From: Dermacentor variabilis
Lineage: Eukaryota; Arthropoda; Arachnida; Ixodida; Ixodidae
Direction of reading: 5' to 3'
NCBI RefSeq assembly: GCF_050947875.1
Contig: NC_134569.1
Coordinates: forward strand, 208,124,127 to 208,188,126
Length of the DNA stretch: 64,000 nucleotides
Below the pieces are notes generated by a model that had not been told where the DNA came from, did not search any database, and was given only the letters and a program-made list of their open reading frames with translations. This document shows positions 29,697 through 57,764 of the stretch, piece by piece (within the stretch, counting starts at the first letter, position 1; each line of letters begins with the position of its first letter). The translations under genes were made by a program, and so were the position numbers.

Positions 29697-30289
29697 CCAC
29701 TGCCTGACGGCTCAGCATCTTGACTTGTCAAGGGGAATTAGGGCGCTGTGCCTTTCGGCGCAGCCCCGGGTTTGTCCAAAGGGCGCTCGCAGGAAAATTC
29801 TCCATCTTGCAGATTCGGAATCCGGGCTTGTGGTAATGGCACAACAATGGACACTGCCACGAAATCCAGTACGCGTTCTCAATGTTCGCGCTAAAACGCC
29901 TTTTCGAACGTGAAAAGGCATTCTAGGCAAAATGCAGAATAATTTCCGGCGCCGGGGGTAGTTTTGGTCCGCGGTGCATGACAGCACGAAAAGATTTCGG
30001 CGGGGGGGGCGCTGAAGCCACATAAGCCCTCCCCCCCCCCCCCCACTGGCTACGCCCCTGTCTCCAAAGTGGTGTTAGATTTACGATTTCCGCTAAACAG
30101 ACATCACTTCTCCACTGATCGGCTTCGATTTCGCAATTACAACACGTGCCCTAAAGTGAATAGTAAGATTAGTTTAGAAAAGTTACACAAAAAAGTCATG
30201 AGAGAATGCGTATATTCGTTTCTTTAATATGGCCCCCTAACTGGCTGCATGCTTTAACTATTGACTAGGAGAATCATAGCGATCGCTAT
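29697..30289. other. Unassigned; C17-run element end
   Basis: A poly-C run followed by 'actggctacgcccctg' at about 30027-30060 is a block seen at ends of non-autonomous elements in many arthropods. No gene is supported. Confidence 0.4.
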
Positions 30290-31020
30290 GATATCGGCAC
30301 TCCAGGTGCATTTTTTGCCGTCGTCGTTGTCGCGACGATCCCCATATATTGTCCAAGGGCGATAGCCGTCGCCACGCACCGCATGCCGTAGGGGTGAGTG
30401 AAAGGCGCGAGAGGAAAGTGGGTAGGAAACTGCCGTCTTCAGTCGCGTGAAAAGACCCCGGGGGGAAGGGAGGGAGGGAGGTGACATTGTACTTCGACCG
30501 CGCCCGAGGTGCACCGACGTTCGCGGCTAAATCTCGCGCGCACAAAGGAAGAAAGCGGGGAGGAAACGCGCCGTATACCGTCGCGCGCTTGGCACTCGGG
30601 AGAGGGGAGGGAGGAGGCGGCGGCGTTGTATACTTAGGCAGGCACTGCGATCTGCGTCGGGGGCAGAGTCTAGGTGCGACGGCGGCTCCAACGTTTCTAG
30701 ACTAGCTTGGGCGGCTCATACCTTGGTGCGTGCTGCGTTCTCACCGCTCGGTTTGCGTTGAAACGATACACAACACGCAGGTCCTTTCGCTCGCTGCCGC
30801 TGCCGCGCTTCCTCCCGCCAGCGTTTTGACAGTTTGTGTCCGTGGTCATCGAGTGTGATTTGTTCATGCTTGCCTGTGCCCACTGGCACCATGGTTGGTA
30901 ATTTAGACAGTAAGTGAATGTTTGCAAGAAAAATAGGTATCCTTACTTTGTATAGCTGTCCATGCATCTGCTATTGCCGTCGATGCTTCGCGCCTTCCGG
31001 GCGAGATTGCGACTTCTTTG
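30290..31020 (+). repeat. Interspersed repeat family R1, copy 2
   Basis: Collinear with 8285-8905 (see that entry). It is longer by about 100 bp through extra GC-rich and purine-rich insertions, including a 'gggagggagggagg' run near 30465. Confidence 0.65.
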
Positions 31021-31261
31021 TTTAGGCGTTCAGATTCGGACTGACCATTCTCCACTTCTGGCTCTCTTTCCCAACTACATATCCCATTTCTAAAATGATG
31101 CGTTTATAACCACTCCCAGCGCTGCTTGACCCTTCGTCGTCAATAGCAATTTCACTCAATTTATCATAAATTCCTTCTGTCACTAGAAGTTTAGCCATAC
31201 CTCTCAGCGCCACCTGGTGCTCATTTTAGGTGCGAGTACCTAAGAAAGCTTAGGTACTCAC

Positions 31262-31521
31262 GGACTCAGCGACCTCCTCCTTCGTGCTCCCCAGGGCGCC
31301 ATGAAGCAAGCGACGCGCTTGCTTGAGGGGCGTGTGCCAGCCCGGGACTACGGCCACCGGCTTGAAGGGTGGGGTTACATTCACAAACGAGCTCTCGTCT
31401 TCCGGGCTCTGCAGTTGTGCGTTGACGGGCACCTGTGGAGGCGCCTCGGTACCAGCGGCTTGTTGTGACTCGACGGCGCTGCTGGCCACCCTCTCTTCAG
31501 TCGAGACTGGCTTACTCTCGC
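31262..31521 (-). CDS. Candidate internal coding exon (unknown; possibly cytoplasmic part of the M13 gene)
   Basis: An open minus-strand segment codes about 86 residues rich in Ser, Glu, Pro and Ala, with PPFKPVAVVPGWHTPLKQ near the end and no recognised domain. The 3' end is a good donor (TCC|GTGAGT at 31261-31260). Two acceptors are possible: CCGCAG ending at 31522, whose phase (1) fits the exon at 33043-33277, or a stronger pyrimidine tract ending CATAG at 31590, whose phase (2) does not fit that exon. The donor leaves phase 0, so it cannot join the M13 exon at 13346 (phase 1) directly; another exon would be needed. Function is unknown. Confidence 0.4.
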
Positions 31522-33042
31522 CTGCGGAGTCACAACCGCGCAGGCGTTGCTCAGAACACTCGGGGCCCTTTCGCGGTAACGGGATCAAGCTATGCATCAC
31601 AGAGACAGCAAGCAAACACATCGACCATATAATAATAAAGCCCGCACGTTGAAACGCTCTTTGCTTATTCGCGAATCATACTTGGCACGAAGCGACAAAG
31701 AAAGCATCGGGTTGCAGGAACGAGAGTTATAAAACTATTACTTACAAAGGGGACTGACGCAGGCGACCAAGGGGCGACTCCGAGATTACAGCCAGCGATG
31801 CTCATGCACAAAAACTTAGCAGTTACAACCGGATGATCTCGCTTTTAACGAATATTCTCGGAACTGATGACATTGTAGTCCTTCTTGTATACTCGCGGCC
31901 AGCGTTATTGCATGCTCGGATGCTGCATTCTGCGTGTTTTCGGGCTCAACAGGGTGAACACTGCTTTCGGCGAAGCGCGATTCGCTTCGACTTCGCTTCG
32001 CGGCTGAGAGCGCCGGCGCATGTCTATGGAAAGCACCTTTCCTACTAAGACGCACTCTTGGAGTCAGATTGGCGTTTACAGCTACGAATCAATAGATTTG
32101 TTAACACACGTGTAAGTGCGTCTGGAAAGAGGAGCAAATTTCGAAATTTCGCACCAGTATCCTCTGTCCAACGCGCGTCATCTTCAACGAAGAGTTCGTG
32201 CACTGCTACAAGACGATAACGTTTATAAAGGTCACGCTTGACTAGCCTTCTGGCTGTCACCTCCAGAATGATGTCCTTGGTGACAATAGCTTTTATGAAG
32301 TGACGAAAATGGCGGAAGTAAATTTGTTGGTCTTGTGAAGCACATTAGCTATCGCAGGATGCATGTGCCGATACCAGCGGTACTGTGCTCGTGCCACTCG
32401 ATGTTCTGCATATGCTCAACTTAGGCATCAGAGCAGCAATACAATTAGAGTTAAGCGCATAACGCCTTTCTTCTCAATCTGCGCTGCGGAGCTTGCGAAT
32501 GCCAGAAACTGGAACGGTAGGCTGTGGCTATATCTCGAAGTATCAGTGGTGATGGTGACAGAGGTAGATGGGAATTATTTCCGCTGTAAAACCCTCAGGG
32601 GAGGCGATCCGACTTATACGGGCAGTGTTTTTTTTCTCTCCCATGGAGTGAGGAGTCTGCGGAACCATTCTATGGTAGCGCCATGTTGCAGTTGGCAGTA
32701 AAGGACCAAGCATATAAAAGTTATTGTGTTCCAGTTGCTCCGGCTTCAACACAAGCGATAGAAGTCGCTTCCGAAAATACCTGAACGGTCCTTAGAAATG
32801 GGCTCTTCTCTCTTGCATCCGGAAAGGCACTGGGGTCTCTGCTGTGAAACGCATACTCCTCCCTCCCCCCCCCCCCCCCCAATTACCACGCACAATTGCC
32901 AGCGCCCTGCATAAATATGTCTTAATTACTGCGACCAAGATCGGGCGGTTCGAACGCGTCAATCTCGGGGGCCATGCTGCTACTCAACTACTTCTAAACG
33001 GCCGTCCAACCAAGGGCCTTGATATCATTAGGCTCAGCTTAC
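31522..33042. other. Probable intron or intergenic DNA
   Basis: Contains a C-run at about 32864-32880. A minus-strand open stretch near 32040-31930 has a possible acceptor but no phase-compatible donor. No other gene signal. Confidence 0.4.
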
Positions 33043-33277
33043 CCTGTTCTTCGGTTTGTTTGGGGCTTACGACGTCGGTGCCGGACGGCGACTTGATCGC
33101 GCTTGAAGTGCGCTGCATGCGTTGGTGACGCCGCTTGGCGCGGTGCTTCTTTGAGGGCGGCGAGGACGGCAGCGCTCTCGGAGGCTCGTTGACCCGCGGG
33201 CTCCTTCCTGTCTGCGTTGGAGACAGGGGGTGTTGCTGCGGTATGTGCCATGAACTGGGATCAGAAGCGGAGTCCAT
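33043..33277 (-). CDS. Candidate first coding exon, basic/proline-rich N-terminus
   Basis: An ATG at 33277 in good context (CCAACATGG) opens 78 codons beginning MDSASDPSSWHIPQQH, continuing Pro-rich, with a basic patch KKHRAKRRHQR and ending SPKQTEEQ. The frame runs into a strong donor (CAGG|GTAAGC, donor at 33042-33041) in phase 1. A TATA-like box lies about 105 bases upstream. A short hydrophilic tail of this kind suits the cytoplasmic part of a type II membrane protein. The phase equals that of the M13 exon at 13346 on the same strand, about 19.7 kb downstream, so it may be the missing start of that gene. This link is inference only. Confidence 0.45.
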
Positions 33278-33354
33278 GTTGGTCTGGAACGACTACCAAA
33301 CCGCAGATCGCAGACGTTCGATAGAGATTGTTCCGCTCCTGCCGGTCGCAGCTC

Positions 33355-33390
33355 GCAGTACGCGCGTGCACCCAGCGCAGTTTATACTTC
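33355..33390 (-). promoter_or_regulatory. TATA-like core promoter upstream of the candidate first exon
   Basis: On the minus strand GTATAAAC (33387-33380) lies about 30 bases before GC-rich sequence and about 105 bases before the ATG at 33277, giving a predicted 5' UTR of roughly 75-80 nt. No experimental start site is known. Confidence 0.4.
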
Positions 33391-33429
33391 TTCCTCTTTC
33401 ACCCCTCAGCGTGCAGCTCGATAGCACGT

Positions 33430-33585
33430 GCTCGAGGACGGCGCCAGAAGGCGCCCCGGTCGTCCAGACCAGGGCCGTGGAGTGGGCCACCCAGGTCGCC
33501 GTCAGCCATGAGCTGATGGCCATCTAGCACGGAATCGTCCGCACATGCGTTCTGACGAAAATAAAGTTTTTCCATCCATCCACCC
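33430..33585 (+). mobile_element. Very short LINE 3' end (probable I group)
   Basis: The end of an open frame (AVEWATQVAVSHELMAI then stop) resembles the last residues of I-group ORF2 (compare LVSWAQDDAPTWEPH at 10.8 kb). A short 3' UTR with AATAAAG and TTTTTCCATCCATCC follows, like the terminus at 6540. Only about 150 bp remain. Confidence 0.45.
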
Positions 33586-33654
33586 ATGTCGTAAAACTCT
33601 GAGGAGATGACCACTTCCCACAAACATCCGAAAAAATTCACTGACGAATACGAT

Positions 33655-34180
33655 ACCCCCTAATGCGAGATTTTAGCGCAGTTCTATACGTGTTTTCATT
33701 TCGCGATATATTGGCTGGCACGGACAATCTGTCTCGTGCGGCCCGTTGCAAACGGAGCGAAGTGTGGCGCGACTGCCTTCGAGAGGCAGCGCGTGGGTGA
33801 CGCGTGAGCGCGACTCACAACAGCCGCGGCAGATAGACCTCCGCTCATGCAGCGTTTTGTTTCCATATATGGTGTCGGTGGACGCGCTCGCCGCATGTCA
33901 TCGGTGAACAGACTACGGTGCCTTACTCTGGCGCCATCTCGTAGCTGTTGTCGCCGCAGAGCCCGTCTTGCGCAGCACTACGCTTTTCTTCTCGCGCTTT
34001 CACCATACTCTCCTCCTCCGCTTTCCTGCTCGCGCTCTCTTCGCTATTGCCGTCTTTCATCCGCCGCTGCGCTCCGCGTTCGTTTGTTCATCTTTCGCTG
34101 TGCTCGTCCGCTCAGTTACGCTGAGGGAAGACGCCGACGCGAAAGGCAGGAACGGGCGCCTAGGAGCTGCGTTCTAAAAA
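33655..34180 (+). repeat. Interspersed repeat family R2, copy
   Basis: Matches the reverse complement of 46240-46690 along most of its length: 'tacgtgttttcatttcgcg', 'gttgcaaacggagcgaag', 'ggcagcgcgtgggtgacgcg', 'ctggcgccatctcgtagc', 'ctcctcctccgctttcct', 'gcgctccgcgttc' and a closing 'gagctgcg.t.taaaa'. No conserved reading frame, so it is probably a non-autonomous element. Confidence 0.75.
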
Positions 34181-34199
34181 GATTGGTTGATCCATCTTT

Positions 34200-34500
34200 C
34201 AGAAGCATCCCAGGAGAAAATATACAACTGGTTTTAGCTGGATTCAAATGGGGTTGAGTAGTTTCAGTTGGTGCCAGCTTGAAAGCAACTGGTTTACCGG
34301 CGAGCCCAACTGGTCCCAGTAACAAACAAAACCACTTGCAGCTGGTCCCAATGGAGGCTAACTGGCCTCCTGTGTGCATGATGGCCCCAGTTGGATCCCA
34401 AATGGGACCAGTTGGTGAAGGAACCAAGTGGTGCCGGTCCAGCAGGTCCTGGGTCTCTGTGAACTGGTCATGCAACTCGTGTTTGTTCATGGTCAGGTAA
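34200..34500. repeat. Degenerate minisatellite-like block (CCAACTGG / GGTCCC units)
   Basis: Variants of CAACTGGTCCCA and its complement recur irregularly at least six times in about 250 bp. The period is not constant. Confidence 0.5.
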
Positions 34501-35699
34501 TGCATCGATTCATTCTGCATGGATCACCTTTCAGTCAAATTGCATTTAAAATTGTTCTGATGAACATAAATTATTCTGTCTTCGACATGAGTTCATAAAT
34601 TTAGAACCCCACAATTTGAGCGGAAATGCTATCATCGGCTTGAGATGCTGCTACGCACTAAAGAGCACAACACAATTCTCAGTATCTCACAAAAATTTTG
34701 TCCTGTTGTAGTAAAGAGCGGCCTTTCCACGACTAAACAGCCAGTCCAGCTATGATTCAGAAATTTGTTAGCGCATATATAATGATAAAAGAAGTTTTTC
34801 GTCTTACCCAAATGGTGGGCCGACCTAAGAAAAGTTAACAGAACTGCTATTTGTTGACTAAGCAGTGGAAACGTGCAAGGTTGTAATGCGTAACTTTGGC
34901 ACCTACACTACCTTTACAAACGAATTAGGTTTACGTAATTATCATAAAATCAACTGGTCTTACTGCTTACTTCAGCATGACCAAGCAATAGCTTATTTGA
35001 AACATTGATGGAGACCACAGCATGGTGTCAAAAATTTATTGTCTCCATCACATGTCGTGTTCTTCAGACCAAATCTAGTCGCATTAAATCCGCTTGCACT
35101 AAGGTTAATAAACAAAACGCCAAAGGGAAGCTAAAGAGCATCATTGAAGCAGTTTAGAATAGTAAAACGTTCTTTGAAAATTCTATATTTATTAATTTGA
35201 TTCTATGAAATCCAAGAAAACATGATTATTGTTATGAGAATTATGACAGTAACAGGAAATGCGATGTTTGGCCAGGATAATGTGCATAACTATTCGAATA
35301 GAGTTCTTTTTCCTTTTTTATAAGTGGACGCCCACATTATCTCCAGGATAGGCCAGTCGCGAACAGTAGGTGACAAGAAAGAAATAGAATGGAATTGTTC
35401 CATTATATTCATTTGTAAAGGAAACCTACACCATCTATTCTATTTCCAAGATGAATCATTAACAGTAAACTCTCCGTACGTATTTACGTACCTCAAAGGT
35501 TTGACAAGAAGTAATGTGTGAGAGGTACAAATAACAAGGAAGAAGCCAGAAAAGAAGTTCTACAATGTTATAACTACATAAACAGGAACACGAAATAAAT
35601 AAAGGCACCATTTTCCCGAGAAGAGATATTTTACAATTCTAGTAAGGTAAAACCATTTCTGTAAAAAAATCTATACAAATTTGACACAAAATGCAAAAC
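34501..35699. other. No recognisable gene
   Basis: AT-rich, no supported features. Confidence 0.6.
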
Positions 35700-36860
35700 A
35701 AGGTCCTCAAGGGAAGTGATACAAAAAAGTTTGTGATTGAACTTCCATGTAGAGACGTGGAGCAACACTAGGTTCCATTTCAGCAAGGTTTCTCAAATAG
35801 ACCATTTCTGGCTTCATAATACGCGCAGCTTGATAGGCCGTGGTTGTTAAAAATTTGTACGATACTGCAAAGACGCGCACTTGACCAACTATATCCTTAA
35901 ACCAGAGCAAATGAGCTATTTTAAAACATTTTCCGAGAGGAGTGATTGCAGCTGTGGAGTCAGTATTGTATGGCCTTGTATACTACTCGCTGAGAAGAAT
36001 GTACCGAGACAATGCAAATCTATTGTGCTCCATTATAGGACCACTAATGATATGGCCAATTTTGTTTTGTACAAGCTCCAAAAGTGGTTGAGGAGCAGCG
36101 CGTGACTTACCAAGTGGGCCAAAGCGTTCCTGGTGCTGAGCGTTATTCTCGCTCAGAAGTGTCTGAAAGTTAGCGCTGGCCATAGTCTTCAGACTGGCAA
36201 ATGAGGTTATATCATTAGGCGTTCTTACTATTAGCAGGGGAACGCCTTTCGCAGATGTTACAAGTTTCTTTATTTGTCTAAGATCTGACTCAAATGCAAA
36301 CATGAGTGGGTCCAAAGTGGGTTCTGTTGTGCAACACTCTCGGGCAAATGCTGAAGATAATGCACATTATAAGTCATTTTTGTTAAAAAGAGGAACTGAA
36401 CATCAACTATAATCTTTACCAGATAATCTGTATTCGCAATGACATTTTCACTACTGACTGTACCTTGAAGGAGCAGTGAGACACCTCTAACGAGTAAAGC
36501 AAAGCGTCTTAAAAACTTGGCATTCAAGATTCCATCCATACATGGCATTGTAAAAACACAGCAGCCATCGTTGCCACTCACTCACCTTGCAGACATAATG
36601 AAAATGAGCGTTGCAGCCGGTGAAAATGGGCAGGTGGCTTCACACTGCAAAGTCGCTTATTAAGCAAGTTCAGGTGGCTTGGATTATCAACGTAGAATTT
36701 CTGGCCTACTACAACTCAGTGATTTGTCTTGTCACACCAATCAGCACACATTGCACGTAATCGGGTGTGAATCCCCACATTAGATTGATATTTGGAAGGT
36801 TCAATAAGGGTCTGGGACCTTTCATGCCCTTCACAGCCGTGCGTAGTCAGCATCAGCATC
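35700..36860 (-). pseudogene. EnSpm/CACTA-type transposase relic (C-terminal half)
   Basis: Minus-strand pieces carry, in order, GFTPDYVQCVLIGVTRQIT (near 36780), LNLLNKRLCSVKPPAHF (near 36670), a helical stretch ending MTYNVHYLQHLPESV (36390-36330), NPLWTHSC, then FAFESDLRQIKKLV and SAKGVPLLIV (36300-36220), and a weaker tail (35910-35707). These are the conserved landmarks of the C-terminal half of animal EnSpm/CACTA transposases, where the wild type typically reads 'GPLW..SCF.FES..G.L'. Stops and frame changes separate the blocks and the upstream catalytic part is not visible. No CACTA-type terminal repeats were located. The element or its remnant lies just upstream of the candidate plus-strand gene. 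Confidence 0.7.
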
Positions 36861-37574
36861 AGCTCAGAACGTAAAGAGCAAACCTGATCATTAAAAGCCA
36901 GTAAGCCGTGATTATTGAGGTAACAAATGGCTTACGTTTTACAAGGCAGGAAGTTTAACATGTTTGAAGTTTTGGCTCAATTTCTAGGGCACGAAACTAC
37001 ACATTCTAGATTCAACCTCTTCGGATGATGACACTTTGTGCCTGGCATCAGAACTCAAGCGGGAGAGGGCAGAAAAAAATGCCAAGATAGAAAAAGCCTT
37101 GAAGCTTGAAAAGTTTGACTTTTTTTATGAAACAAATGGCATCGCTGCAGCGCTGTTTAGAAGCAAAAATATTTTATTGTACATAGTTACAAGCCACACA
37201 AATATTGTAAGTCCACGGTGCAACAACTGTGAAGTCCATGCAAGCATTCGAGATTGCTTAGTCCACGTGTCTTTCCAAAGGAGCTTATAAGTAATAATGT
37301 ACCGCGTGGCGATGATTGTGTCTGAAATGTGCTTTTTAGAATGATTGCTGACATCACACCTGTGATGTCAGCTGTGATGTCAGCTCTTCTACACTTTTGT
37401 GTGCCAAATCCTCTTCATGTCACACATTGCTTTAATCTTCACAGTTGTTTGGTATTCATATTCATAATAAACTACAAATGTCCTTCTTGGGCAGTTCGCG
37501 TGTCTATTTATTGCCTCCTTTTTAGTGAAAAACAGCTGCAAGGATGAACATATAATAGACGGCACGCTTTACAG
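36861..37574. other. No recognisable gene
   Basis: Includes a small tandem duplication of tgtgatgtcagc at about 37360-37383. A non-coding 5' exon of the following gene could lie here, but none is identifiable. Confidence 0.45.
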
Positions 37575-37609
37575 GGACTGAATGGATATCTTGCTTAGTG
37601 ACGATGAAG
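37575..37609 (+). CDS. Candidate gene, exon 1 (start codon)
   Basis: A small exon sits between an acceptor (GCTTTACAG ending 37574) and a strong donor (GAAG|GTAAGT at 37610). It holds ATG at 37582 directly preceded by an in-frame TGA, coding MDILLSDDE plus one base (phase 1). An acceptor before it implies a non-coding leader exon upstream. It links in phase to exons at 39354, 40524 and 43429. No homologue is recognised. Confidence 0.4.
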
Positions 37610-39353
37610 GTAAGTTTTTATTCTCTTTCAGTACTTAGTGTTAAAAGCAGGCCATCCAAGGTGTGTTCGAGCAAGAGAATTAAAAATGAGGCATGCCGAG
37701 GAAATAATTTCAAACTTCTAAAGACGTAGCCGAAGTGAAAATATTTCAGATTTCATAGTTAACAGGTTTAGTAATGAGCCCACAGCTGCAGCAAAGAGAT
37801 TCTCCACTTGCACTGCTATTGTCATTGAGAAGCACGACTATTTTCAGTATTTTATGCATATGCAAAGCTTCAGCTATTGTGCAGGGCTATAATGCAGCAT
37901 AATTGCTAGTTTAAAGAGGCCATGTGCAGACGCTTTAATGGCACCAATATCGCTTCTGATGAGGCTTTGTGCCTTGTGGAGAAAATTACGAAAACAAACA
38001 GAAAAATGCGGTACTGAAACCGGATTTATAAGCTAATGCCAGAATACGTGCAAATGCCTACTGGTGACACTGGTGACACTCAAACTGTGACTTTCCAGTA
38101 GCCTCCCATGCGGCGCAGCCATGAACTCGCCTCTGCTATTACAAATATGTCTCTTACTACGACCTATCTTTTTAACTGAGAAATGTTTGGACTGTTTTAA
38201 ATGAGCATAAGGTCTTTGTTTTTGCTCTGTGGTTATGCATTCTGGGAACACAAGCAAAAAGAGACGCAAACGTTGGACCAAAATACAGTACTGTGCTGAG
38301 CAGCTTTTATGTTTTCAGTCCAGTCATGCATCCATTTTAGAGTGCCATGTTTTGTAAAACAAGAATACCATTGTGCAATTACTCGAAAACTTCACGTTTC
38401 AGATGCTTCACTTTCCACCGCAATTCCACATGTGCAAATTTCGGCCTTGGTTATGGACAGCAACTCTGCTCCTTGTAAGCGTCAAGTGGTCGCAAACGTC
38501 CTCATTTTGATATATTTTTCACCAAAGCTAGAGCTCTGCTACATTACGTTCAAGTAAATTTGTGTCCTGCCACACTGTGCTTAGATGGACAGTAATTAGG
38601 AAAACTTGGTGCCCTTCCAGTCCGTGAAGCAGGATGACCGGAAAAGCTGTGCATGTGGGATGGCGAACTGCACCTCCGCCGCAGGTCGGCCCGGCGTTTG
38701 ACTGCCTTCGGGATCGGCCCACGTATGGGGAGTGCTTAACGCTTGCTTCACCTTCACCACGGGTCGGCCCGGCATTGCACTATTTTCGGGATTTTGTGCC
38801 TACGCACTGTCACGATCCTAAGGGAACTAGCACTGCACAACTTTGCTGTAAAAATAATTTGACCTGTGTTAGTAAAATATTATTCTACTACACCAAATGA
38901 GCGCCTTTTAGGTCATAGTATGAGAAGAGGCTTTGTAAACAATAAAATATGCAGAAACCTAAAACGGCTGGCGCTAGCGCCACGGGAGCACCCACAATAG
39001 GTGGCTGTGACATCATGGATTTTGACATCTACTTGGGTCGATTTAATTGCTTATCACCAAAAAAAAGGAGGCAAGGTTTCATAAAATTATGAAAGAACTG
39101 AAGGCTAAGTCTAACGAATTCTTAGCAAGTTGGCTGTGCCAAAATGGCCAAATTTGCGATGTCGCAGATTGGAGCGAGATTTTCGCACGAAGATAAAAAA
39201 TGGAGATTTGATGTTCATTTTCTCGAATAGTAATCAACCTCTTCCCACTAAATAAATAGAAATGAGAGTGAAATTTTACCAGAGCCAACTTCTTCAGTAA
39301 ACCTCTTTAGGGCGCTCTTAAGCTGCCGATAAACTAACCTAAAATTATTTCAG
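37610..39353. other. Predicted intron 1, with satellite-like repeats
   Basis: AT-rich apart from the GC-rich 78-bp repeat at 38665-38800. No other coding signal. Confidence 0.35.
38665..38800. repeat. 78-bp tandem repeat (about 1.8 units)
   Basis: cacctccgcc..ggtcggcccgg starts at 38671 and recurs at 38749. Between them lie 'cttcgggatcggcccacg' and 'tatggggagtgcttaacgc'. The same unit is at 57765-57842, so it is a dispersed satellite-like family, much more GC-rich than its surroundings. Confidence 0.8.
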
Positions 39354-39432
39354 GCACTGACCTTCCTGCTGCTGCTACAAGCCAGTTGAATGTGCCACCC
39401 TCTCTCCTGTGCATGTTTAAAGTCCGTTCGTT
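39354..39432 (+). CDS. Candidate gene, exon 2
   Basis: Bounded by AAATTATTTCAG (ending 39353) and a GTAAAT donor at 39433. It accepts one base from exon 1 and codes GTDLPAAATSQLN, then VPPSLLCMFKVRS, leaving two bases (phase 2). The GTAAAT donor form is also used by exon 4. Weak on its own; support comes from phase agreement on both sides. Confidence 0.35.
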
Positions 39433-40523
39433 GTAAATACTATCTGATTATGAATATTTATGATGTTCAATGAAATGAAAGCTCTATTATATCATAAGGT
39501 CTATGCCATGAGCATGCATGGAGACAACTAAATTTGCGAACTTCGTCAACCGACAACGTGAGAATTTAAGATATATCTGCAGTCTACTGCTCAGTTATTT
39601 GTGACATTTAGGCTGCAGAACTAGTAAGTAAACTTATCGAGGAATTAAATGTATAAATTGATCGAAACAAGCTAGGCTGATACGTGGCTAAAATCGGTTT
39701 CAGCGGGTTGAAAACGTAAATAAACAGTGGGAACATTTTGCTTGTTGGTGTAGCACAGCATCTACGTTAAATTTAATGTTGCTCTATCCCTAGACGAAAT
39801 TAGAAAAATAGAGCAGGGACTGCTGTATTCACACACACTGCGCACTACGGGGTAAATATGGCCTAAAATTGATTAAAATCTCAGAAAAGTGCAATAAAAA
39901 CGCAATATGAGAATGAAATGAGTGCTTCTGCGTTCCCTGAATTTGGCTATGAACGAGCCAATCAAAACTAGTTGCCTTTCAAAATCAAAACGGATTACAC
40001 GCGTGCAAGAATAATTGCGCATACTGGCCAAATACACTTATGCCATCAGCTGTTGGAATACTGAACCTCAGTTTCTATGGTCCTTATGGCACAGTGCTGA
40101 TGGCTGTGTAGTTATCATGGATTCATGTTGTCATAATGCTTGGCAAAGTAATAATGCAAGTTAATACTGTCCTAATGACGGCAAGGCCACTTCTCTGAAA
40201 ACCCAGAATTAGATTGTTCTACTTTACATTAATATGAATATAGTATTGTGGGCTGTTTAAAGGGATCAGAAACAGCACATCACAGTATAATGATTGAAAC
40301 TGCGAAACATATTCGTGGGAAAAGCAAAAACTAGTATGATTGTCACATACAAAAAAATCTGCGGAATGTGTCTGACTACTTCAGTACTTGCCATGATAAA
40401 TAAAACATAGTTATTGACCTAACTGAGATACCACTGGCTGCTTCACTGTATGAGGTACATCCTACATAGGAATGGTATGTTTAAGCAGTGCCCTTGGTTG
40501 ACAGGTTCCATTGCTCTCTTTAG

Positions 40524-40548
40524 GCTCGGAACAGAAATTTTCTCACAG
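40524..40548 (+). CDS. Candidate gene, exon 3 (25-nt microexon)
   Basis: Bounded by TTGCTCTCTTTAG (ending 40523) and CAG|GTATGG. It completes the split Leu codon and codes LGTEIFSQ, ending in phase 0, which is what exon 4 needs. A microexon is easily imagined where none exists, so confidence is modest. Confidence 0.3.
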
Positions 40549-40947
40549 GTATGGTGGACCTGTTAGTGCATATCTGATTGATTTATTTCAAATGATAATT
40601 CGCACATGTATCGTGATTTTAATCCCTATGCGCAACTGTTCAAGTGAATTTATATGTGACCTTTTGAACAAGATTCACGTTACTCTTCCATTTGTTATCA
40701 ATTGGCGACGTTTGCAAATTTTAGTTGTTTCCATGCATGCTCAAAATGTTTAGTAGCAAAACTGACTGATGGCAGCGCTGAAGAGAATTTTATTTAACAT
40801 CATTATGAATGCTATGGTGGAAGTTCAAGAACCTCAATGTACCATATTCTCGTTTCAGGGTGCTATAAAACATGTACTTTTAAAAATGTTGTGGGCGGAA
40901 GAACATTTTCGTTGTGTAAATATTGTCTCCGAGTCATTGCATATTCA

Positions 40948-40959
40948 TTTTCATCGTTT
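40948..40959 (+). repeat. Target-site duplication, left copy
   Basis: TTTTCATCGTTT occurs here and again at 43413-43424, exactly flanking the LINE at 40960-43412. Confidence 0.85.
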
Positions 40960-43412
40960 CATCAGCCACCAGCCGTTTGGTGGCGCTCCTAAAGCCAGGA
41001 AAATCGCCTTACGAAATGTCATCTTATCGGCCAGTAGCTTTAGCTAGCTGTGTCGGTAAGGTGATAGAACGGATGGTGCGCACTAGATTAGAGTGGTTCA
41101 TGGAAAAGAATGAGCTTTATCCTGAAATGATGACCGGATTTAGACGTGGCCGGTCTGCAATAGATGGGGTCATTGATCTCGTGTCCACGATCGAACACGA
41201 AAAAAAGCGACACCGACTTGTAGGAGCAGTTTTCTTAGACATAAAAGGAGCTTATGACAATGTACTGCATGAAGCCATTCTTGATGCCCTCAGTAATTTA
41301 GGCATCGGCGGCCGTCTCTACATGTGGATTGAAAATTACCTAGATGGTCGTACAGTCTTCATGTCCACGAATGATGGCGAAACGACAAGACACGCTGTGG
41401 TCTGTGGAGTGCCTCAAGGAGGAGTCCTCAGTCCGACTCTTTTCAATGTTGCTCTTATTGGCCTTGCGGAAATAATTCCTGATACAGTACGCATCAGTAC
41501 CTACGCAGACGACATATGCATATGGGCATCCGCAGTCACGCGACCGCAAATTCGTGCCAGATTGCAGTGAGCTGTTTCTTTAACGTCTCAGTACCTGCAG
41601 TGCCAAGGACTGGAACTGGCCCCAGACAAGTGCGCTGCGATAGCGTTCACACGGAAGCTTATGTGTTGGTATCCAATTATGATCAATGGAAATGACATCC
41701 CATGTGTCACCCACCACAAATACCTTGGCGTTGTCATTGACCGCAGTGTTTCATGGTCGAAACATGTGGCAATGTTAAAGAAAAAATTAACTGGGCTTGC
41801 TCAAGTTTTTCGCTTTCTGGCCGGTATGAAGTGGGGTCCATCTGAGCATTCGCTACTCCGGCTGTACCAGGCTCTCTACGTCGGATACATTCGGTATAGC
41901 CTGCCAGTTTTATCAAGTATGAGCCCGTCATGTTTGCGTACGCTGGAAAGTGCCCAGGCACAGATGCTGAAAACATGTATCGGTGTTCCACGATGCACCT
42001 CAACCCACGGAACAATTGAGGAGGCTCGCGTCACCCCTTTACCTGTCTATCTACGATGCGAACCTCTTCGAGTATTCCTGTGACTGCTGTGCCGTCATGG
42101 ACGCCCCCCCCCCTTATCTACACTTCCTGACGTACGGCCAGACTCCGCTTTTTCAAGAGCCATTAAATGCGAAGAATCTGCCATACCATCATACTTTGCC
42201 CCTGCTGACCTTCCACGTATGCCCCCATGGGTAATGTCCAAAATACCGGTACGTCTATCTATTCCCGGAATTTCTAAAAATTCGCGAATACCTACCGTCG
42301 GCCTCAGACATTTTACACTTGAATATATATCGAAAGAATATGACTCCTCGGTGAGCGTGTATACAGACGGATCGGTCTCGTCGTATGCGTCTGGTGCGGC
42401 TTTTGTCGTGCCTGCGCATCAAGTCATTCGACGGTTTCGTCTGCATAACAAGACGACTACAACATCTACGGAACTAGTGGCAATCAGAGAGGCCGTTCAA
42501 TATATTTCGCGACAGCCTCCTCAAATATGGACAGTCTTCAGTCACGCAAAATCGGCTCTTCAACTACTTAGAGTGGTGTTGAAAGAAAGCGCTTACAGAA
42601 TGTTGGCTCTTCAAACTGCCGAGCTCTACACTTTAGCGCAAGAAAACGGCCACCACATCACATTTCAGTGGATTCCCAGTCACTGTGGTATACAGGGCAA
42701 CGAACTGGCCGACGCCGAAGCGAAGAAAGCACTCGAAGAACGAGAGTCACTGCTTTCAATTCCTTTTTCAAGAGCGGACGCCAACTGTCTCCTCTCCAGT
42801 GTCATCCGAAAATTGACAGCAAAGCACTGGGAGAATCCGGATAATCGCCACAGACGATTCCAGAGATTGGACCCTACCATGAATTTTAGGCTACCACCGA
42901 AAATTCAACCAAACTGCGCCAGTCTTCTGCACAGACTAAGGCTGGGGGTAGCGTTTACGCGCGGATACGTGCACCTCACGCGACGCACCGAGTCTCCACA
43001 CTGTGAGGTGTGCAATGTGACTGAGACTATAGGTCATGTGCTTTGTGACTGCCCTAAGTACGTGGAAGAGCGTGAAAGGTTGGACAACGACCTTACGCGT
43101 CGCGACAGCGCACCGTTGTCGGAGGACGTTAATTTAGGCCCTTGGCCAGATGCTCAATCGAGTTTCAAGGCCATCCAGGCATTACTGAACTTTTTAAAAA
43201 TTACGGGCCTGGATTGCAGACTTTGAGCATGCCAAATTGCTTGCCATATGTTCTACATCTTCCTTCTATCGTCATTGTCACCCATCATGCACCTCTATCT
43301 TCCCTCTTTCTTTCCCTCTTCCCCTTCCCCCAATGCCGAGTAGCTGGCTAGAGGAATATACCTCAGGCCGACCTCTCAGCATTTCGTATCATTAAACTTC
43401 TATCTCTCTCTC
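40960..43412 (+). pseudogene. 5'-truncated I-group LINE with RT and RNase H, inserted next to an exon
   Basis: The copy starts inside reverse transcriptase (LLKPGKSPYEMSSYRPVAL) and keeps FLDIKGAYDNV, GVPQGGVLSPTLFNVAL and TYADDICIW. A single in-frame TGA at 41568 interrupts the frame, which then continues (HKYLGVVIDRSVSWSKH) to about 42060. Two frameshifts near 42060 and 42220 (one beside a C10 run) lead into RNase H at 42219-43226: VYTDGSVSSY, TELVAI, WIPSHCGIQGNELAD. The third acidic position reads FSHAKSAL instead of the usual D..SKSAL, so the RNase H is inactive. The terminal finger is CEVCNVTETIGHVLCDCP. A 3' UTR ends in (TC)n at 43412. It belongs to a different I-group subfamily from the copies at 1-5 kb and 52.7-57.4 kb. 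A 12-bp target duplication flanks it. Confidence 0.9.
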
Positions 43413-43424
43413 TTTTCATCGTTT
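43413..43424 (+). repeat. Target-site duplication, right copy, inside the splice acceptor
   Basis: TTTTCATCGTTT, followed directly by ACAG and then the exon at 43429. Confidence 0.85.
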
Positions 43425-43428
43425 ACAG

Positions 43429-43648
43429 TTCTATCTTGCAAAAGAAGTAATTGCAACCGCAGCCCAAGTTGAGAAGATATTCAGAAATAAAGAGGCCACG
43501 CTGGTCATCAAGGATACGGCTCAAGCGATTTGTACCGCTAGTGTTCAAACAACGCGATGTGTCAGCAGCAATGTGGCCCCAAAATTGAGAGTGCTTTGTG
43601 AAGCACCCAAGCAGCCCCTGTCTCCAGTAAAAGCGGACGTCGTTGCAG
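43429..43648 (+). CDS. Candidate gene, exon 4
   Basis: The acceptor TTTACAG ends at 43428 and the donor GCAG|GTAAAT begins at 43649. The whole 220-nt segment is open in phase 0: FYLAKEVIATAAQVEKIF, then a hydrophilic region with KDTAQAICTASVQTT and APKQPLSPVKADVVA, leaving one base (phase 1). No known domain is recognised. The following exon was not found with confidence; a possible acceptor at 47911-47913 (TTTTGTAG) is phase-compatible but unconvincing. The LINE at 40960-43412 ends 16 bases before this exon. Confidence 0.5.
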
Positions 43649-44055
43649 GTAAATCAGAATTCTGCCTTTATGTATTCGGTAGCTAGCTGGGCGAGTCGGT
43701 ACATCTGCGTTAGTATTTACAGCGCGCACATAAAACACGGACGGAGGAGATAGTCACGACTCGTGAGTCAGCGCTCGTGTTACGTCTCTCTTTGTCCGTG
43801 TTTGATGCGCGCGCCGTAAGTAATAATGTTTATGTAAGTCGGTAACCATAGTTGGCTAGTGCATGCTTTGAAGTGCAAGAGGGCAGCACTTGAACACAAT
43901 AACGAGATTTTCCCTTCGTTTGCATGCTTTGTATTGGCTTGATAATAGACTTGTTTGCAGCCCTATTGGTTTAACATAGCCCTGAAAATTTTATGAACGA
44001 AAGTTTTATAAAGTGATCGTAAAGTTGGTGCTGCCACTCTTTCTGTACCACTGGC
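43649..44055. other. Intron or intergenic DNA
   Basis: No recognisable feature. Confidence 0.5.
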
Positions 44056-45890
<1,835 letters not shown>

Positions 45891-50900: not shown

Positions 50901-52749
50901 CGATTTCTAAAGCACTCGTCGTTGAGGAAGTTCGCTCAACTACTCGAGCTGAATGAGATTACGCGTCCCAAATGCACGGCCTAACCAGCGCCGGGAAACC
51001 GGCCTCCCTTGTCCACCTCAGCCAGTCCCATGCGCAACGTTGGTCGAATAGGCAGCAATTATTTAATGGCAGACACTTATGCGAGTGCTCCTTATTCTGA
51101 GACTGCAGTTCCTGTACTACGAAAAGTTATGAGCGGTTATTTGATTTTATTTACGCTCCCATATGCCTTGCGGCAAATTCTCCTGAAATAGAAAAAGACA
51201 GTATGAAAGTGGGAAAACACTCATACAATATTTGAACTGGATGCTGAACATTTTTCCATATGTAGGACCAGGCGTCATCGGCATTATCCTGACGTAATGA
51301 CACAGCAAAATTTGCAAACAGCTCCATGAAATAAGTATGGTGATGTTGGTAATAAATGAAAATGGACAAGAGCGCTGCGCACTCTCCTTCTGGCTACGCT
51401 TGCGTGTGGCAGCCGCAACCAATCACAGGAACGGAGCGAGCCAGTATGTCATGACGTCACGACGCATCGACCTCCTGGGTACCAAAACCGAAAGTGGTTT
51501 CCAAAAACACGCATTATCCTAAATAGCGTAGGTTGCTTTGGCATGTGCCAGTATTTATTCTTGGCTTTAGGGTGCTTTGACACCTTTATATGCAACACGA
51601 AAAGTGAATTGTCGAAAGTTTCGTGTCCTTAAGGAAAAAGAAACATTGCAACCAATGGGGCCGAATGCAAACTTTCAGATTTTTTTGCGTAACATCCACT
51701 GAATCAACCGCCGGGCTTGGCGTACTACAGGCATTGTGAATACAGAATGGTGTCACTATATCGAGTAATGGCAGAGCAGGATTCCCATTCCTCAACGTAA
51801 CACAGAATGGCTGCGGCCGTAAGCTTGCGTGAAACCGTCTGGCAGGCCCACTCCAGCTAAATGCTGCCCCCTTAGCGTTTGCGCCGAGAACCAGTCGACT
51901 TTGGCTCAGCCTCAGGTTATCACTTTACAGCGTGCGCTGCAACGTTGCCTTGTAGTTCTCAAATTCGTCGTGATGCCGGTGCACACAAGCCTGATAAAGA
52001 AGAAAGAAAACGGATGGTGGAAGAATATCGCTCTTGGCCGTTATGCGTGCCATCGCGGTGGAAAGACAGAAATGTGTGATTTCATCGTTTCCCTGCAGAA
52101 GCAGACGACGCGCATCGGAGACCGACATGGATAAGAGTCTCACGCACTGAGAAAAGGTCACTGATACTATTGGATGTGCGAAACATTTCACTAGGGATGA
52201 CTTTATTCCCGGTGAGTAGACCATTCCTTTCATGTTATATGTTTTAGTTATGTTGCTGGCGTTCAAAATCGCGTAGTGTACTTCGTTTGCGCAAGCTTTT
52301 CAATAAATAAGTGATGTACGCTAAGCTTCATTTGGTTTTGTTAGCAGAGTTTTCTGGCCCTGCATTATTGTTACTAATTCCGAGAGCAGCAGCAATATTG
52401 TCGTGGTGCAGCGAAGACTGGAGACGAGGACACCTATAACAAGAACAGCTTGTTCTAGTAGTCGAGCCTAGAGATGACTTCTTCGTCTTCTAATGTAGGC
52501 AATTAAGGCTGATGCATGAGACGAACTCTACTAAAGCTCCCATCATTGTCTTTGTCGTCGACAAAGAAGATACGCTTTATTTGCCTCCCTTTAAAAAGAA
52601 GCATCGTCCCGATGCTAGCGGGGGTCACTGGTGTGAATTCCTCGCAGTCACTCGCTTACGTACGGCTTCATGCGTACTACGTGCACAACTTTAGGCTGGT
52701 GCTGGCGGCGCCTCGTGCAGTAGGGGTTATCTGGGACTACCTTGTAGGT
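50901..52749. other. No recognisable gene
   Basis: No supported feature; several short open frames lack motifs. Confidence 0.55.
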
Positions 52750-53070: not shown

Positions 53071-53778
53071 TCGGGCCCAACTCCGACGCGGCCTATTCAA
53101 ATACATGTAAAACGCAAAAACGTTTTTGTGAGATAACCCCTGGACCGATTTTGATGAAATTTGTCGCATTTGAAAGAGAAAGTTAAATTCTAGTGACTGT
53201 TGGAAGCGGAATTTCGATTTAGGGCTTGAATTTTCTTAAAACGATTTTCAAATATTTGACCGTTAGAAAAAAATAGAATCACGAAGTTTACAAATTCATA
53301 GCTTTGCATCAAGAATTGATATCGCGGTTCTGTAAACGACATTCATTAGATCATTCAAAGCGGACAAATTCAATATGTCATTTTACATCTTACGTGAATT
53401 TGTTACGTTGGTTACAACGGTTTTGCAAAAGTTGTATTTCCCTATGATTAATTTTTTTTATATTCATGTGTAACATATCAATTTTGTCCGCTTTAGATGT
53501 ACTATTAGATGCAATTCACAGAATTGTATTATCATTTTTAGTGGTTAAGTTACAGAGTTGTAAACTTGATAGTTTCGTTTTCTGAAAATTTTCGATTTTT
53601 GCCAATTTTTAATAAAAAATTGACAATCTAATTGAAAAATTCGAAACCAACAGTCACTAGATTTTAAGTGTCTTTTAAACGCAACAAACCTCCTCAAATT
53701 TGGTACAGTGGTTGCCGAGAAAAACGAATTCTGCTTTTACATGTATTTAGATAGGAGCACTCGAGCTAAAGCTTCCTC
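53057..53778. mobile_element. 722-bp foldback MITE with TTAA target duplication
   Basis: Termini GAGGAAGCTTTAGCTCG and CGAGCTAAAGCTTCCTC are exact inverted repeats, flanked by TTAA at 53053-53056 and 53779-53782. Inner blocks pair as well: attctagtgactgttgg with ccaacagtcactagat, gcggacaaattcaatatgt with acatatcaattttgtccgc, and gtttacaaattcatagc with agagttgtaaactt. The whole element is therefore one long imperfect hairpin. It codes for nothing visible. TTAA is the target of piggyBac-type transposases, but the termini lack the usual CCC start, so the mobilising enzyme is unknown. Confidence 0.9.
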
Positions 53779-53782
53779 TTAA

Positions 53783-54290
53783 TCTGGCAGTGGAACTGTC
53801 GCGGGTTCCAACGCAAGCGAGCGTTAGTGCAACAGTACTTGACGCTATAGATGAGAAACCGCTAGCTATAGCCCTGCAGGAGACTGGCAAAGCAGCACAA
53901 CTTTCGGGATACCAAGCTTTTTCAAGTGACAGGGGTGAGAAATCTCACGTCACTACGTTGATTAAGAGGAATATTGCGGCAATCGTGCAGCAAATCAACT
54001 CGAGAGACATTGAGGCAGTGCTTCTAGAAATTATTACGGGACGAAAAGAGGAACCGAGCATGTTCCTATTAAGCTTACACAGTACTCCACAGCAGCGAAA
54101 GGTGCGATTCAGGGCCCTCTTTCGCAAAGCTATTCAGTCAGCCGGGACTAATCCCTTGCTATAGTAGTCGGTGACCTTAATGCAGCGCATCCGGAATGGG
54201 GTTACGCTAAACAAGATCCAAAAGGTAGGCAGCTATGGAAGGACGCGCACGAGCTAGGACTCACCCTACACACGGACCCTAGCAGTCCGA
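53783..54290 (+). pseudogene. LINE ORF2, endonuclease part
   Basis: Resumes directly after the foldback element with a WQWNCRG block in one frame (53784 onward), then shifts frame near 53850 to LAIALQETGKAAQLSGYQAF and LLEIITGRKEEPSMFLL. A further shift near 54160 leads to VVGDLNAAHPEWGY. Motif order matches the endonuclease of the intact copy. At least two frameshifts. Confidence 0.8.
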
Positions 54291-54295
54291 CCAGG

Positions 54296-55903
54296 GTGGG
54301 TAACAGCGTGTGCGCAGACACCTCCCCTGACCTGACCTTCTCCAAAAGTATGACAGATCTGAATTGGAAAAACTCGGAGCTCAATTTCGGAAGTGATCAT
54401 TTCATTCTGACCTCGATCCTTAAAAAAGGGGTGAAGACGCGTCGTGCGCGTCAACCGAGGATCACTGAATGGGGATTATTTAGGGAGAAGCGAGAGAAAG
54501 CTGCCATAGGGAAAATCACAAACATAGAGACATGGACGGAGGTCATCGCGCGTCACGTTGAAGAGGCAACCAAGACGCTTGAAGGGGACGATGCCCCGGA
54601 AATAGTCGATAGCAAACTGCTTCACATGTGGGAGGCAAAACGTAGTATGGAGTGCAGACTAAAGAAGCAAAAATGGAGCCGTAATCTTAGAAGGCGGATT
54701 GCTAGACATAACAAAGAAATTGAAAATTACGCGATCAAATTGTGCGAACAGAATTGGTGCAGCAGATGCGACGAGATGGAGAGGGGCATGAGTCTTTCCA
54801 AAACGTGGGGTCTGCTGAGACACCTGTTAGATCCGACCAATTCGAAAACCCTATCAGGAATTAGATTATCAAAAGCCAGGCACGCGTATGAGGGTACAGA
54901 CGCGGAATTTATGGACAAACTAATCACCATGTACATTTGCGATACGCATAGCACCCCCCTCCCGGAGTACGACGGAGCTCCCAATGAGGAGCTCGACGCA
55001 CCCATCACGGAGGCGGGGGTTAGGGCAGTAATATTGGGACTAAAAACCAAATCAGGCCCGGGCCCTGACGGGATAACTAACAAAATTCTAAGAAATCTGG
55101 ACGATGCCTCGATCAGCGCTCTGACGGAGTACATGCAAGAAATTTGGACTAAAGGCCACCTGCCACGCCAGTGGAAGATGGCAAACGTGATCCTAATTCC
55201 AAAGCCGGGCAAACCCCCTAAAGTAGAAAATCTAAGACGCATTTCCCTAACCTCGTGCATGGGGAAATTGATGGAGCGCGTAGTCCAGACCAGACTGACG
55301 CACTTTATGGAGCAGAACGACCTGTGGCCGCACGAGATCATCGGCTTCCGACCGGGCTTGTGCACGCAGGACGTGATGCTCCGACTAAAACATAACATAA
55401 TCGACTCACGTTCTAGAGACGCCAAGGTAATCCTCCGCATGCACTTGACAAAGGCTTTTGATAATGTTAAACACGAAGCGATACTCCACGGTCTCCAAGA
55501 AATCGGGGTAGGCGCGCGAACATTCGACTATGTCAAGGACTTTTTGTCAGACAAGACTGCCTGCATGAAGTTCCAAGATATTGAATCTCCAACACTGAAA
55601 TTAGGAAGCAGGGGCACGCCGCAGGGCTCGGTTCTCTCCTCATTCCTCTTCAACGTGGCGACGAGGGCCCTCCCCGAAGCTCTGAGAAGTATACAGGGGA
55701 TAAATTTCATTATGTATGCGGATGACATCACCCTCTGGACCAACCAGGGGAGCGACCAGCCAGTGTCCGCCAGGCGGCAGACACTGTCGTGGACTATGCT
55801 GCTAGTAGGGGTCTCTCGTGCTCTCCGCAAAAATCGGAGTTATTCGTCTACAACCCAAAGTCGCTCCGGTGCAAGCATAGCTGGGAATTTGACATTAAAG
55901 TAG
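54296..55903 (+). pseudogene. LINE ORF2, reverse transcriptase part (motif A mutated)
   Basis: A 535-codon open stretch begins in the end of the endonuclease domain (NSVCADTSPDLTFSKS; SDHFILT) and carries RT motifs KSGPGPDGITNKILR, WKMANVILIPKPGKPP, IGFRPGLCTQDVMLRL, GTPQGSVLSSFLFNVAT and MYADDITLW. Motif A reads RMHLTKAFDNV where the intact copy has GLDLTKAFDTV, so the first catalytic aspartate is histidine and the polymerase would be dead even without the frameshifts. The frame degrades after about 55780. Confidence 0.9.
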
Positions 55904-56433
55904 AGGGGAAACCAGCCCAAAGGTAGACCAAATCAGAATCTTAGGACTTTTCACACAGGAAAACGGATATAATGATGGGACAATAAAAAATCTAGAGGGA
56001 TTTGCCACGCAAGCACTTGGCATATTTAGAAGGGTCCCGCTGAAAGAGTGAGGCCTGAAGGAAAGAAGATTGCTTAAACTAACCCAAGCATACGTAATAA
56101 GCCGCGTGTGTTATGCCACGCCTTTCTTAAACATCAGGTCAGAGGAGAGAGGAAACTCGACTCGCTCATTCGACGGTGCATAAAGAGGGCCTTAGGCTTA
56201 CCAATTACCACCTCCACAGAGAAGCTCCTCTCTATGGGAGTGCGCAATACCTGGGACGAAATAGCGGAGGCTGTCAGAATTTCCCAGCTCGAAAGATTAA
56301 GCCGAACGACCACGGGTAGAGCTATCCTCGAAATGGTAGGCCTGCAAACAGATAGGGGACTACGAGGCAAGACAAACATCCCGCTGGACTGCCGAGAAAA
56401 TATAATCATTCCCCCCCCCCCCTCCCTCGTAGC
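55904..56433 (+). pseudogene. LINE ORF2, thumb/connection region
   Basis: Damaged at first; from 56108 it is readable as LIRRCIKRALGLPITTSTEK, then WDEIAEAVRISQLERLSRTT. It matches the starts of the truncated fragments at 5405 and 9660. A C11 run near 56411 lies at another frame change. Confidence 0.75.
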
Positions 56434-57279: not shown

Positions 57280-57367
57280 TCGCGGATGTTCCGTCCCCCG
57301 TCCCCAAGGCCTGTGTGCCGGGGACGGAGAGTAGGGGCCTCCTTATCCGGCGGTACAATAAAGTTGC

Positions 57368-57390
57368 CATCATCATCATCATCATCATCG
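57368..57390 (+). repeat. (ATC)n tail of the LINE
   Basis: About seven units following AATAAAGTTGCC. Confidence 0.9.
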
Positions 57391-57391
57391 A

Positions 57392-57764
57392 AGGTTACTG
57401 GTCTATGGCGAGCATTGTAGCGACCTGCGTCGTAGTCCTGCTGCTGACAGATCCGGGTGACATGCTTGCGAGCAGGCACGTACCCTGGGGGAGGGGGCTG
57501 GGGAGGGGCTCCGGACCCCCTCTCCCCGCCCACACCACCACTCCTCACACACATTCCTAAAGCGCTGACAAATCAATCTATTCGGCAGTCAACATTTTGA
57601 TGCCTTTTACAGCGAGAGCTGTATACATGACTAACCTTACATAGTTTTTTCGTCATCAGTCAGCAGAAAAAAATCATAATGTGGGTCGATCCTTGTGATA
57701 GTGCAAAGAGGGTCTAAGTTCAATGGCGCATATCCCTGTGGGCTCGGGAACCTGTAACGCGCCC
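57392..57764. other. Unassigned; G/C-run element end
   Basis: 'aggcacgtaccctgggg' near 57475 followed by G- and C-rich runs resembles the end of a non-autonomous DNA element. No gene is supported. Confidence 0.4.

What the first reader, a model, noticed from the sequence alone, without database searches (positions are those of the whole stretch)
40948..43428. A LINE landed in a splice acceptor and may have rebuilt it
TTTTCATCGTTT is duplicated at both ends of the LINE, and the right copy is followed at once by ACAG and an open exon. The insertion point was therefore 4 bases from the exon. The target duplication preserves the acceptor, and the LINE's own (TC)n tail now supplies a pyrimidine tract in front of it. 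This is a clear case where retrotransposition inside a 3' splice site could be tolerated or even favourable.
Basis: partly seen in the sequence, partly recalled or inferred. Interest (0 to 1): 0.75.

Follow-up and report, generated by a model that had tools for sequence, protein, structure and literature searches.

The report
Tick LINE inserted into splice acceptor
A recently jumped tick retrotransposon sits inside the splice signal just before a probable exon, kept the signal's last 16 bases and brought its own pyrimidine-rich tail, so the exon may still be spliced normally; similar cases are known in dogs and people.

Summary
TTTTCATCGTTT is duplicated exactly (40948-40959, 43413-43424) around a 5'-truncated RT/RNase H LINE; the right copy runs into ACAG and a 220-nt open exon (43429-43648) with a good donor. 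The genome (2.48 Gb) is probably a hard tick's. A duplicated locus in it lacks the LINE and aligns straight across the insertion point with both splice sites kept: a natural empty site. In 20 of 20 other copies read, the LINE ends in ATTAAA(C/G)TT plus a pyrimidine tail, so the tract is the family's own. The insertion is young (1.28% private differences).

By recalled matrices the acceptor is unchanged or slightly better (8.4 to 9.2; longest pyrimidine run 5 to 15 nt). There were no transcript data; no homologue of the exon was found, and constraint on it is weak. Tolerated: plausible. Favourable: no evidence. The merle SINE and an RB1 LINE-1 are close precedents.

The parts
40948..40959 (+). 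left copy of the 12-bp target site duplication (TTTTCATCGTTT)
40960..40967 (+). 8-nt filler at the 5' junction; not LINE sequence; its CAG ends the rival acceptor
   Evidence: homology of the 39 other scored copies begins at query base 20-23, mostly 21 (= 40968)
40968..43412 (+). 5'-truncated LINE: RT, RNase H, 3' UTR and tail; two in-frame TGA stops
43391..43396 (+). ATTAAA: family 3'-end motif, possible poly(A) signal, and part of the best branch-point-like motif at a usual distance (A at 43395, -34)
43400..43412 (+). LINE's (TC)n tail (one A inside), serving as distal pyrimidine tract
   Evidence: family feature in 20 of 20 copies read
43413..43424 (+). right copy of the target site duplication; proximal pyrimidine tract
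43425..43428 (+). ACAG, end of the native 3' splice site
   Evidence: ACAG in our copy, CACAG in the empty duplicate
43429..43648 (+). probable coding exon, 220 nt, 73 codons plus 1 nt
43649..43654 (+). intron side of the 5' splice site CAG|GTAAAT (score 9.09), conserved in the duplicate
40964..40965 (+). AG of the rival acceptor at the left junction (native branch-point region and tract, then TTTCATCAG); score 8.9
40944..40948 (+). TTCAT, branch-point-like motif of the empty site (A at 40947, -17), now upstream of the LINE
   Evidence: TTCAT also present in the duplicate
29913..44060 (+). stretch with a collinear, LINE-free duplicate on C3 (six blocks, 67.6-82.5% identical, large gaps)

Best explanation
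A 5'-truncated copy of a young RNase H-bearing LINE family inserted by target-primed reverse transcription, in sense orientation, into the 3' splice site of a pre-existing intron. The target duplication copied 12 nt of the native pyrimidine tract, so the right-hand acceptor keeps its last 16 bases (TTTTCATCGTTTACAG) unchanged. Everything further upstream is now LINE: the family's (TC)n tail gives the distal pyrimidine tract, and the motif just before it (ATCATTAAAC, A at -38/-34) must supply the branch point, because the native region now lies about 2.5 kb away. I think it most likely that the exon is still spliced at 43428/43429 in at least part of the transcripts, in competition with exon skipping, the rival acceptor at 40965/40966 and possibly early polyadenylation. 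Shown by sequence: insertion, duplication, family tail, empty duplicate, preserved acceptor, rival acceptor sequence. Inferred: the insertion mechanism, splicing, branch-point use, and that the exon belongs to a living gene.
For: Exact 12-bp duplication. LINE domains and tick relatives. The first look found 1141 candidate copies of the 3' end; the 40 scored are 96-100% identical, this copy included. Tail ATTAAA(C/G)TT plus pyrimidine run in 20 of 20 copies read. The LINE-free duplicate aligns across the junction with both splice sites kept. Acceptor score 8.4 empty, 8.3 duplicate, 9.2 occupied; longest pyrimidine run 5 to 15 nt; AG-free zone 28 to 47 nt. Exon: only pair of its strength in the window, against 11 of 200 resamples with one or more (cut-offs set post hoc). 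Its codon-position bias is reached by 5 of 514 other windows and 30 of 10,000 shuffles, and 0 of 164 open frames in those windows match its purine-first excess. In the merle dog a SINE in an acceptor with a pyrimidine tail lets the original site work when the tail is short.
Against: No RNA data. No homologue of the exon peptide among proteins of about 40-128 aa or 302-962 aa; other lengths were not searched. dN/dS against the duplicate is 0.70 (NG86) or 1.04 (YN00), with the duplicate's stop codon dropped, and exon identity is only a little above the upstream intron's (79.5% vs 75.1%); the duplicate's exon has a stop codon. Codon usage does not fit the window's M13 gene: score -26.4, 728th of 975 candidates. 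The best branch-point motif at a usual distance scores less than the native one (3.06 at -34 vs 4.24 at -17; the native one is itself close to the AG). The left junction scores almost the same (8.9) and keeps the native branch-point region. In NF1, 4 of 14 Alu insertions hit the AG or tract and the downstream exons were skipped. An RB1 LINE-1 of the same geometry causes aberrant splicing.
Confidence: 0.45

Rival explanations
1. The insertion breaks the acceptor: the branch point is lost and the exon is mostly skipped, or the transcript ends at the LINE's ATTAAA. The allele is a loss-of-function or polymorphic variant.
For: Alu insertions in NF1 acceptors were followed by skipping (PMC3219598); the RB1 LINE-1 with target duplication AAATTATCTGTTTC then AG causes aberrant splicing (PMC4859970). 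The native branch-point region is displaced and ATTAAA lies upstream of the exon.
Against: Those were Alus or an L1 with a poly(A) tail; here the tail is pyrimidine-rich and the acceptor score does not fall.
Confidence: 0.27
2. The left junction wins: native branch point and tract, followed by the filler's CAG, splice into the LINE (exonization from 40966), giving a stop after 8 codons in the exon's frame.
For: Acceptor score 8.9; TTCAT motif at -19; the frame from 40966 reads PPAVWWRS then stop.
Against: The resulting exon would be about 2.7 kb or need a LINE donor (best in the LINE 7.8); no transcript evidence.
Confidence: 0.1
3. The exon is not a working exon: it is a relic of a duplicated, decayed gene, so the LINE's place in the acceptor has no consequence.
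For: dN/dS 0.70-1.04, stop in the duplicate, no homologue found, poor codon fit. In the duplicated block 34.2-36.8 kb the longest conserved splice pair around an open frame was only 79 nt.
Against: Both splice sites and an ungapped 220-nt stretch are kept in both copies; strong codon-position bias; open in this copy.
Confidence: 0.18

Closest known systems
Merle SINE in canine PMEL17 (PMC7349775; abstract and passages read)
   Same: Retroelement in an acceptor, target duplication around it, original acceptor kept at the exon side, element's tail acts as pyrimidine tract; short tails allow normal splicing.
   Different: SINE in reverse orientation with a poly(T) stretch; here a sense LINE with a (TC)n tail. 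For merle the effect on splicing is reported; here it is predicted.
RB1 intron 14 LINE-1 insertion, Rodriguez-Martin et al. 2016 (paper itself not seen; passages of review PMC4859970)
   Same: Sense LINE; duplication AAATTATCTGTTTC directly before AG; the insertion lies within the acceptor.
   Different: Full-length L1 of another family, not a TC-tailed one; aberrant splicing and disease.
NF1 Alu insertions in 3' splice sites (PMC3219598, passages read)
   Same: Retroelements inserted into the AG or pyrimidine tract.
   Different: Alu elements; downstream exon skipped.
Introners (PMC9860276, passages read)
   Same: Mobile elements whose target duplications and ends provide splice signals.
   Different: They create new introns; here the acceptor existed before, as the duplicate shows.
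I-clade-like LINEs of ticks (I clade reported recently active in Ixodes scapularis, PMC4748124, passages read; closest protein a Rhipicephalus pulchellus 'tick transposon')
   Same: RT plus RNase H; full-length relatives carry an endonuclease domain.
   Different: Clade placement not tested with a tree.

Membership tests
Non-LTR retrotransposon (LINE) | reverse transcriptase domain | tested here: met
   PF00078, E 2.1e-30
Non-LTR retrotransposon (LINE) | target site duplication and 5' truncation | tested here: met
   12-bp duplication; full-length relatives such as P0001 and P0002 have 1173 and 1224 aa, 754 aa here
Non-LTR retrotransposon (LINE) | conserved 3' end with variable simple-repeat tail | tested here: met
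   20 of 20 copies read, of 39 other scored copies; the scored copies were the best matches to a query that included the tail
Non-LTR retrotransposon (LINE) | endonuclease domain in this copy | not testable with these tools
   The region is lost by 5' truncation; precomputed Pfam of full-length relatives lists PF14529/PF03372
I clade of LINEs | RNase H domain | tested here: met
   PF00075, E 8.2e-14; that RNase H marks the I group is recalled
I clade of LINEs | RT phylogeny | not tested
   no tree was built
Merle-type tolerated acceptor insertion | original AG kept beside the exon with duplicated target | tested here: met
Merle-type tolerated acceptor insertion | element tail is pyrimidine-rich on the transcribed (sense) strand | tested here: met
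Merle-type tolerated acceptor insertion | normal transcripts from the original acceptor | not testable with these tools
   no RNA data
Introner | the insertion creates a new intron in formerly exonic sequence | tested here: not met
   the LINE-free duplicate already has the acceptor at this place, with intron-like, indel-rich sequence upstream; the intron itself is not proven by transcripts

The most novel reading that the evidence does not exclude
This LINE family works as a mobile half-acceptor: each sense insertion carries a branch-point-like ATCATTAAAC and a (TC)n tract, so wherever the target offers an AG soon after the tail a usable 3' splice site arises. In 3 of 20 copies read, the first AG downstream of the tail scores as a strong acceptor (>=8.4), against 45 of 3812 AGs on the window's + strand (not a matched control). 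Here it landed on a native acceptor and took over its upstream half, and tail-length changes could tune exon inclusion as in merle dogs.
Probability: 0.2. Interest if true: 0.55.

Novelty: new member of a known kind. Interest (0 to 1): 0.35.

Why it matters
It is a clean natural experiment: an occupied acceptor, a LINE-free duplicate in the same genome, and a LINE family with a variable pyrimidine tail. It makes testable whether a retroelement's tail can replace the branch-point and pyrimidine half of a splice site, and whether tick LINEs systematically seed splice acceptors. By itself it is one unproven exon in a gene without a name.

Tried and rejected
Exon identity: protein searches at two length ranges, the PDB (best hit E 0.089, taken as chance), Pfam (FIT1_2 at 15.9 bits, cut-off 26.1) and Pfam on the three + strand frames of about 26.0-41.0 kb and 43.7-58.7 kb (only another LINE's domains) gave no gene. 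The search for related loci found no relatives of the LINE protein in viral contigs or genome contigs, nor of the exon in viral contigs; the exon was not searched in genome contigs. Rfam had no match at gathering scores. A codon model trained on the M13 gene ranked the exon low; I do not rely on it because it comes from one gene, but it counts against the exon. One search's first count of splice pairs used a donor cut-off (9.1) that the site just misses; one search repeated it at 9.0, so that test is post hoc. The low indel density in the exon (about 2% by Poisson) is weak evidence, because a 441-nt ungapped run without an open frame exists at 35671-36111. In one search the 17 gap columns private to this copy probably reflect my trimming at 43400 and were not used. 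One search gave 24 hits; I printed the 8 near the diagonal and longer than 60 nt; the two of these at 53 kb I take as repeats. Target preference for acceptors was not tested with a background model, and the 3-of-20 acceptor count has no matched control. Splice and branch-point matrices, base-position weights and the RNase H/I-group statement were typed or stated from memory. Literature searches. Their listings showed no TC-tailed LINE in an acceptor, but the library lacks most subscription papers and I opened only five papers.

Full report
What was checked. The match is exactly 12 bases. The insert has reverse transcriptase and RNase H domains in one frame, interrupted by two TGA stops. Its closest proteins include tick elements: Rhipicephalus pulchellus, 54% over the whole query, and Amblyomma americanum, 71% over 46% of it. 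The host is therefore probably a hard tick (inference). The window is 208124127-208188126 of contig C2 in an unnamed 2.48-Gb assembly, in which TTTTCATCGTTTACAG occurs three times; the two other places show no similarity to the exon, left flank or LINE.

The LINE family. A search with the last 513 bases gave 1141 first-look candidates; the 40 scored, this copy included, are 96-100% identical. I read the 3' junctions of 20 of the 39 others, all from the top of the list: 20 of 20 have ATTAAA(C/G)TT followed by a pyrimidine run of 7-63 nt, mostly (TC)n, and then differing flank. The query included the tail, so the choice favours tailed copies, but tail lengths and flanks differ among them. At the 5' side the 39 other scored copies align only from query base 20-23 (mostly 40968), leaving 8 nt (CATCAGCC) of filler. 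Against six other copies this one has 31 private differences in 2426 gap-free columns (1.28%; the others 28-58), so the insertion is young.

The empty site. Searching the own genome with the exon and the right duplication copy gave two places in all: this one, and one on C3 at 80% identity over query bases 1-265 of 288. That locus has no LINE hit in the 7.9 kb fetched. Joining our flanks at the duplication gives an alignment that passes the insertion point without a gap: TTCATTTTCATCGTTTACAG here, TTCATTTTCACTATTCACAG there; the donor CAG|GTAAAT is kept. Collinear blocks extend from 29.9 to 44.1 kb of the window at 67.6-82.5% identity. Upstream intron divergence is 0.30 after Jukes-Cantor, so the duplication is far older than the LINE.

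Is it an exon? For: the splice-site pair with an open 220-nt frame is the only one of its strength in the window, and 11 of 200 resamples had any (cut-offs set after seeing the site). In 264 kb of both strands it stands 15th of 365 candidates by a splice-plus-base-position score; of the 14 above it, 12 read as transposon frames or the M13 gene by eye and two I could not assign. Codon-position bias is strong: 5 of 514 other windows and 30 of 10,000 shuffles reach it. Against: no homologue found, poor fit to the M13 codon model (728th of 975), dN/dS 0.70 or 1.04, differences by codon position 15, 11 and 19, and one stop in the duplicate's frame. At 1.3% divergence about three substitutions are expected in 220 nt since the insertion (inference), so the open frame says nothing about selection after it. 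I hold a real exon likely but not proven.

Effect on splicing. The acceptor scores 8.4 empty, 8.3 in the duplicate and 9.2 occupied. The last 16 intron bases are identical by construction. The longest pyrimidine run rises from 5 to 15 nt (10 from the tail, 5 from the duplication) and the AG-free zone from 28 to 47 nt. Branch-point motifs: empty TTCAT at -17 (4.24) and GTCAT at -28 (2.66); occupied TTAAA at -34 (3.06) and ATCAT at -38 (2.43). TTCAT at -11 is present in both but close to the AG. The left junction combines the native upstream region with the filler's CAG and scores 8.9; reading on from 40966 in the exon's frame meets a stop after 8 codons. ATTAAA at 43391 may also act as a poly(A) signal (inference).

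Precedents. The merle SINE of dogs sits in the PMEL17 acceptor with a 15-bp duplication; its poly(T) acts as the pyrimidine tract, and short tails leave the original site in use while long ones shift splicing (PMC7349775, abstract and passages). A sense LINE-1 in RB1 has the same geometry and causes aberrant splicing (PMC4859970, passages). Alu insertions in NF1 acceptors were followed by skipping (PMC3219598, passages). The present case lies between: same place as RB1, but with a pyrimidine tail that may play the merle role. This copy's tail is short: 13 nt after ATTAAACTT, interrupted by one A, where other copies have uninterrupted runs of 7-63 nt. That keeps the candidate branch points at -34 to -38. 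By analogy with short-tailed merle alleles I favour at least partial use of the original acceptor, at 0.45.

Verdict. Real, young and well documented by a natural empty site; its effect on splicing is unknown. The kind of event is known. What is somewhat new is a LINE family whose own tail looks like the upstream half of an acceptor: in 3 of 20 copies the first AG after the tail scores as a strong acceptor, against 45 of 3812 AGs on the window's + strand (not a matched control).

Noticed in passing
52099-52211 (+): Good acceptor (8.7) and donor (10.4) around a stretch reading DDAHRRPTWIRVSRTEKR in one frame and VTDTIGCAKHFTRDDFIP in another: looks like a frameshifted THAP-domain exon (motif recalled; Pfam gave no match). 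It is preceded by ATTTCATCGTTT, one mismatch from the target duplication, probably chance.
   Followed up: partly
11308-13401 (-): Long open frame of a divergent M13 peptidase (PF05649 at 27.7 bits, below its cut-off of 32).
   Followed up: partly
29913-44060: Old duplication shared with contig C3 (minus strand), with a much larger gap in the C3 copy (about 20 kb against 2 kb here) between the 34.2-36.8 kb block and the exon blocks.
   Followed up: partly
35671-36192 (-): Mostly open minus-strand frame with three stops in its 35671-36111 part, one of them at the end, and a 441-nt ungapped match to the C3 copy; no Pfam match.
   Followed up: partly
53751-57396 (+): Another LINE with endonuclease and RT; its 3' end is AATAAAGTTG followed by (CAT)n, a different microsatellite tail after a similar poly(A)-like motif.
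   Followed up: no
44023-45880 (+): Open frames of a degraded element just downstream of the exon, interrupted by (AAT)33; looks like a Penelope-like element by eye; Pfam on two of its frames gave nothing convincing.
   Followed up: no
63025-63888 (-): hAT-like transposase remnant (PF05699 at E 0.0056, 16.9 bits, below its cut-off of 21.4).
   Followed up: no
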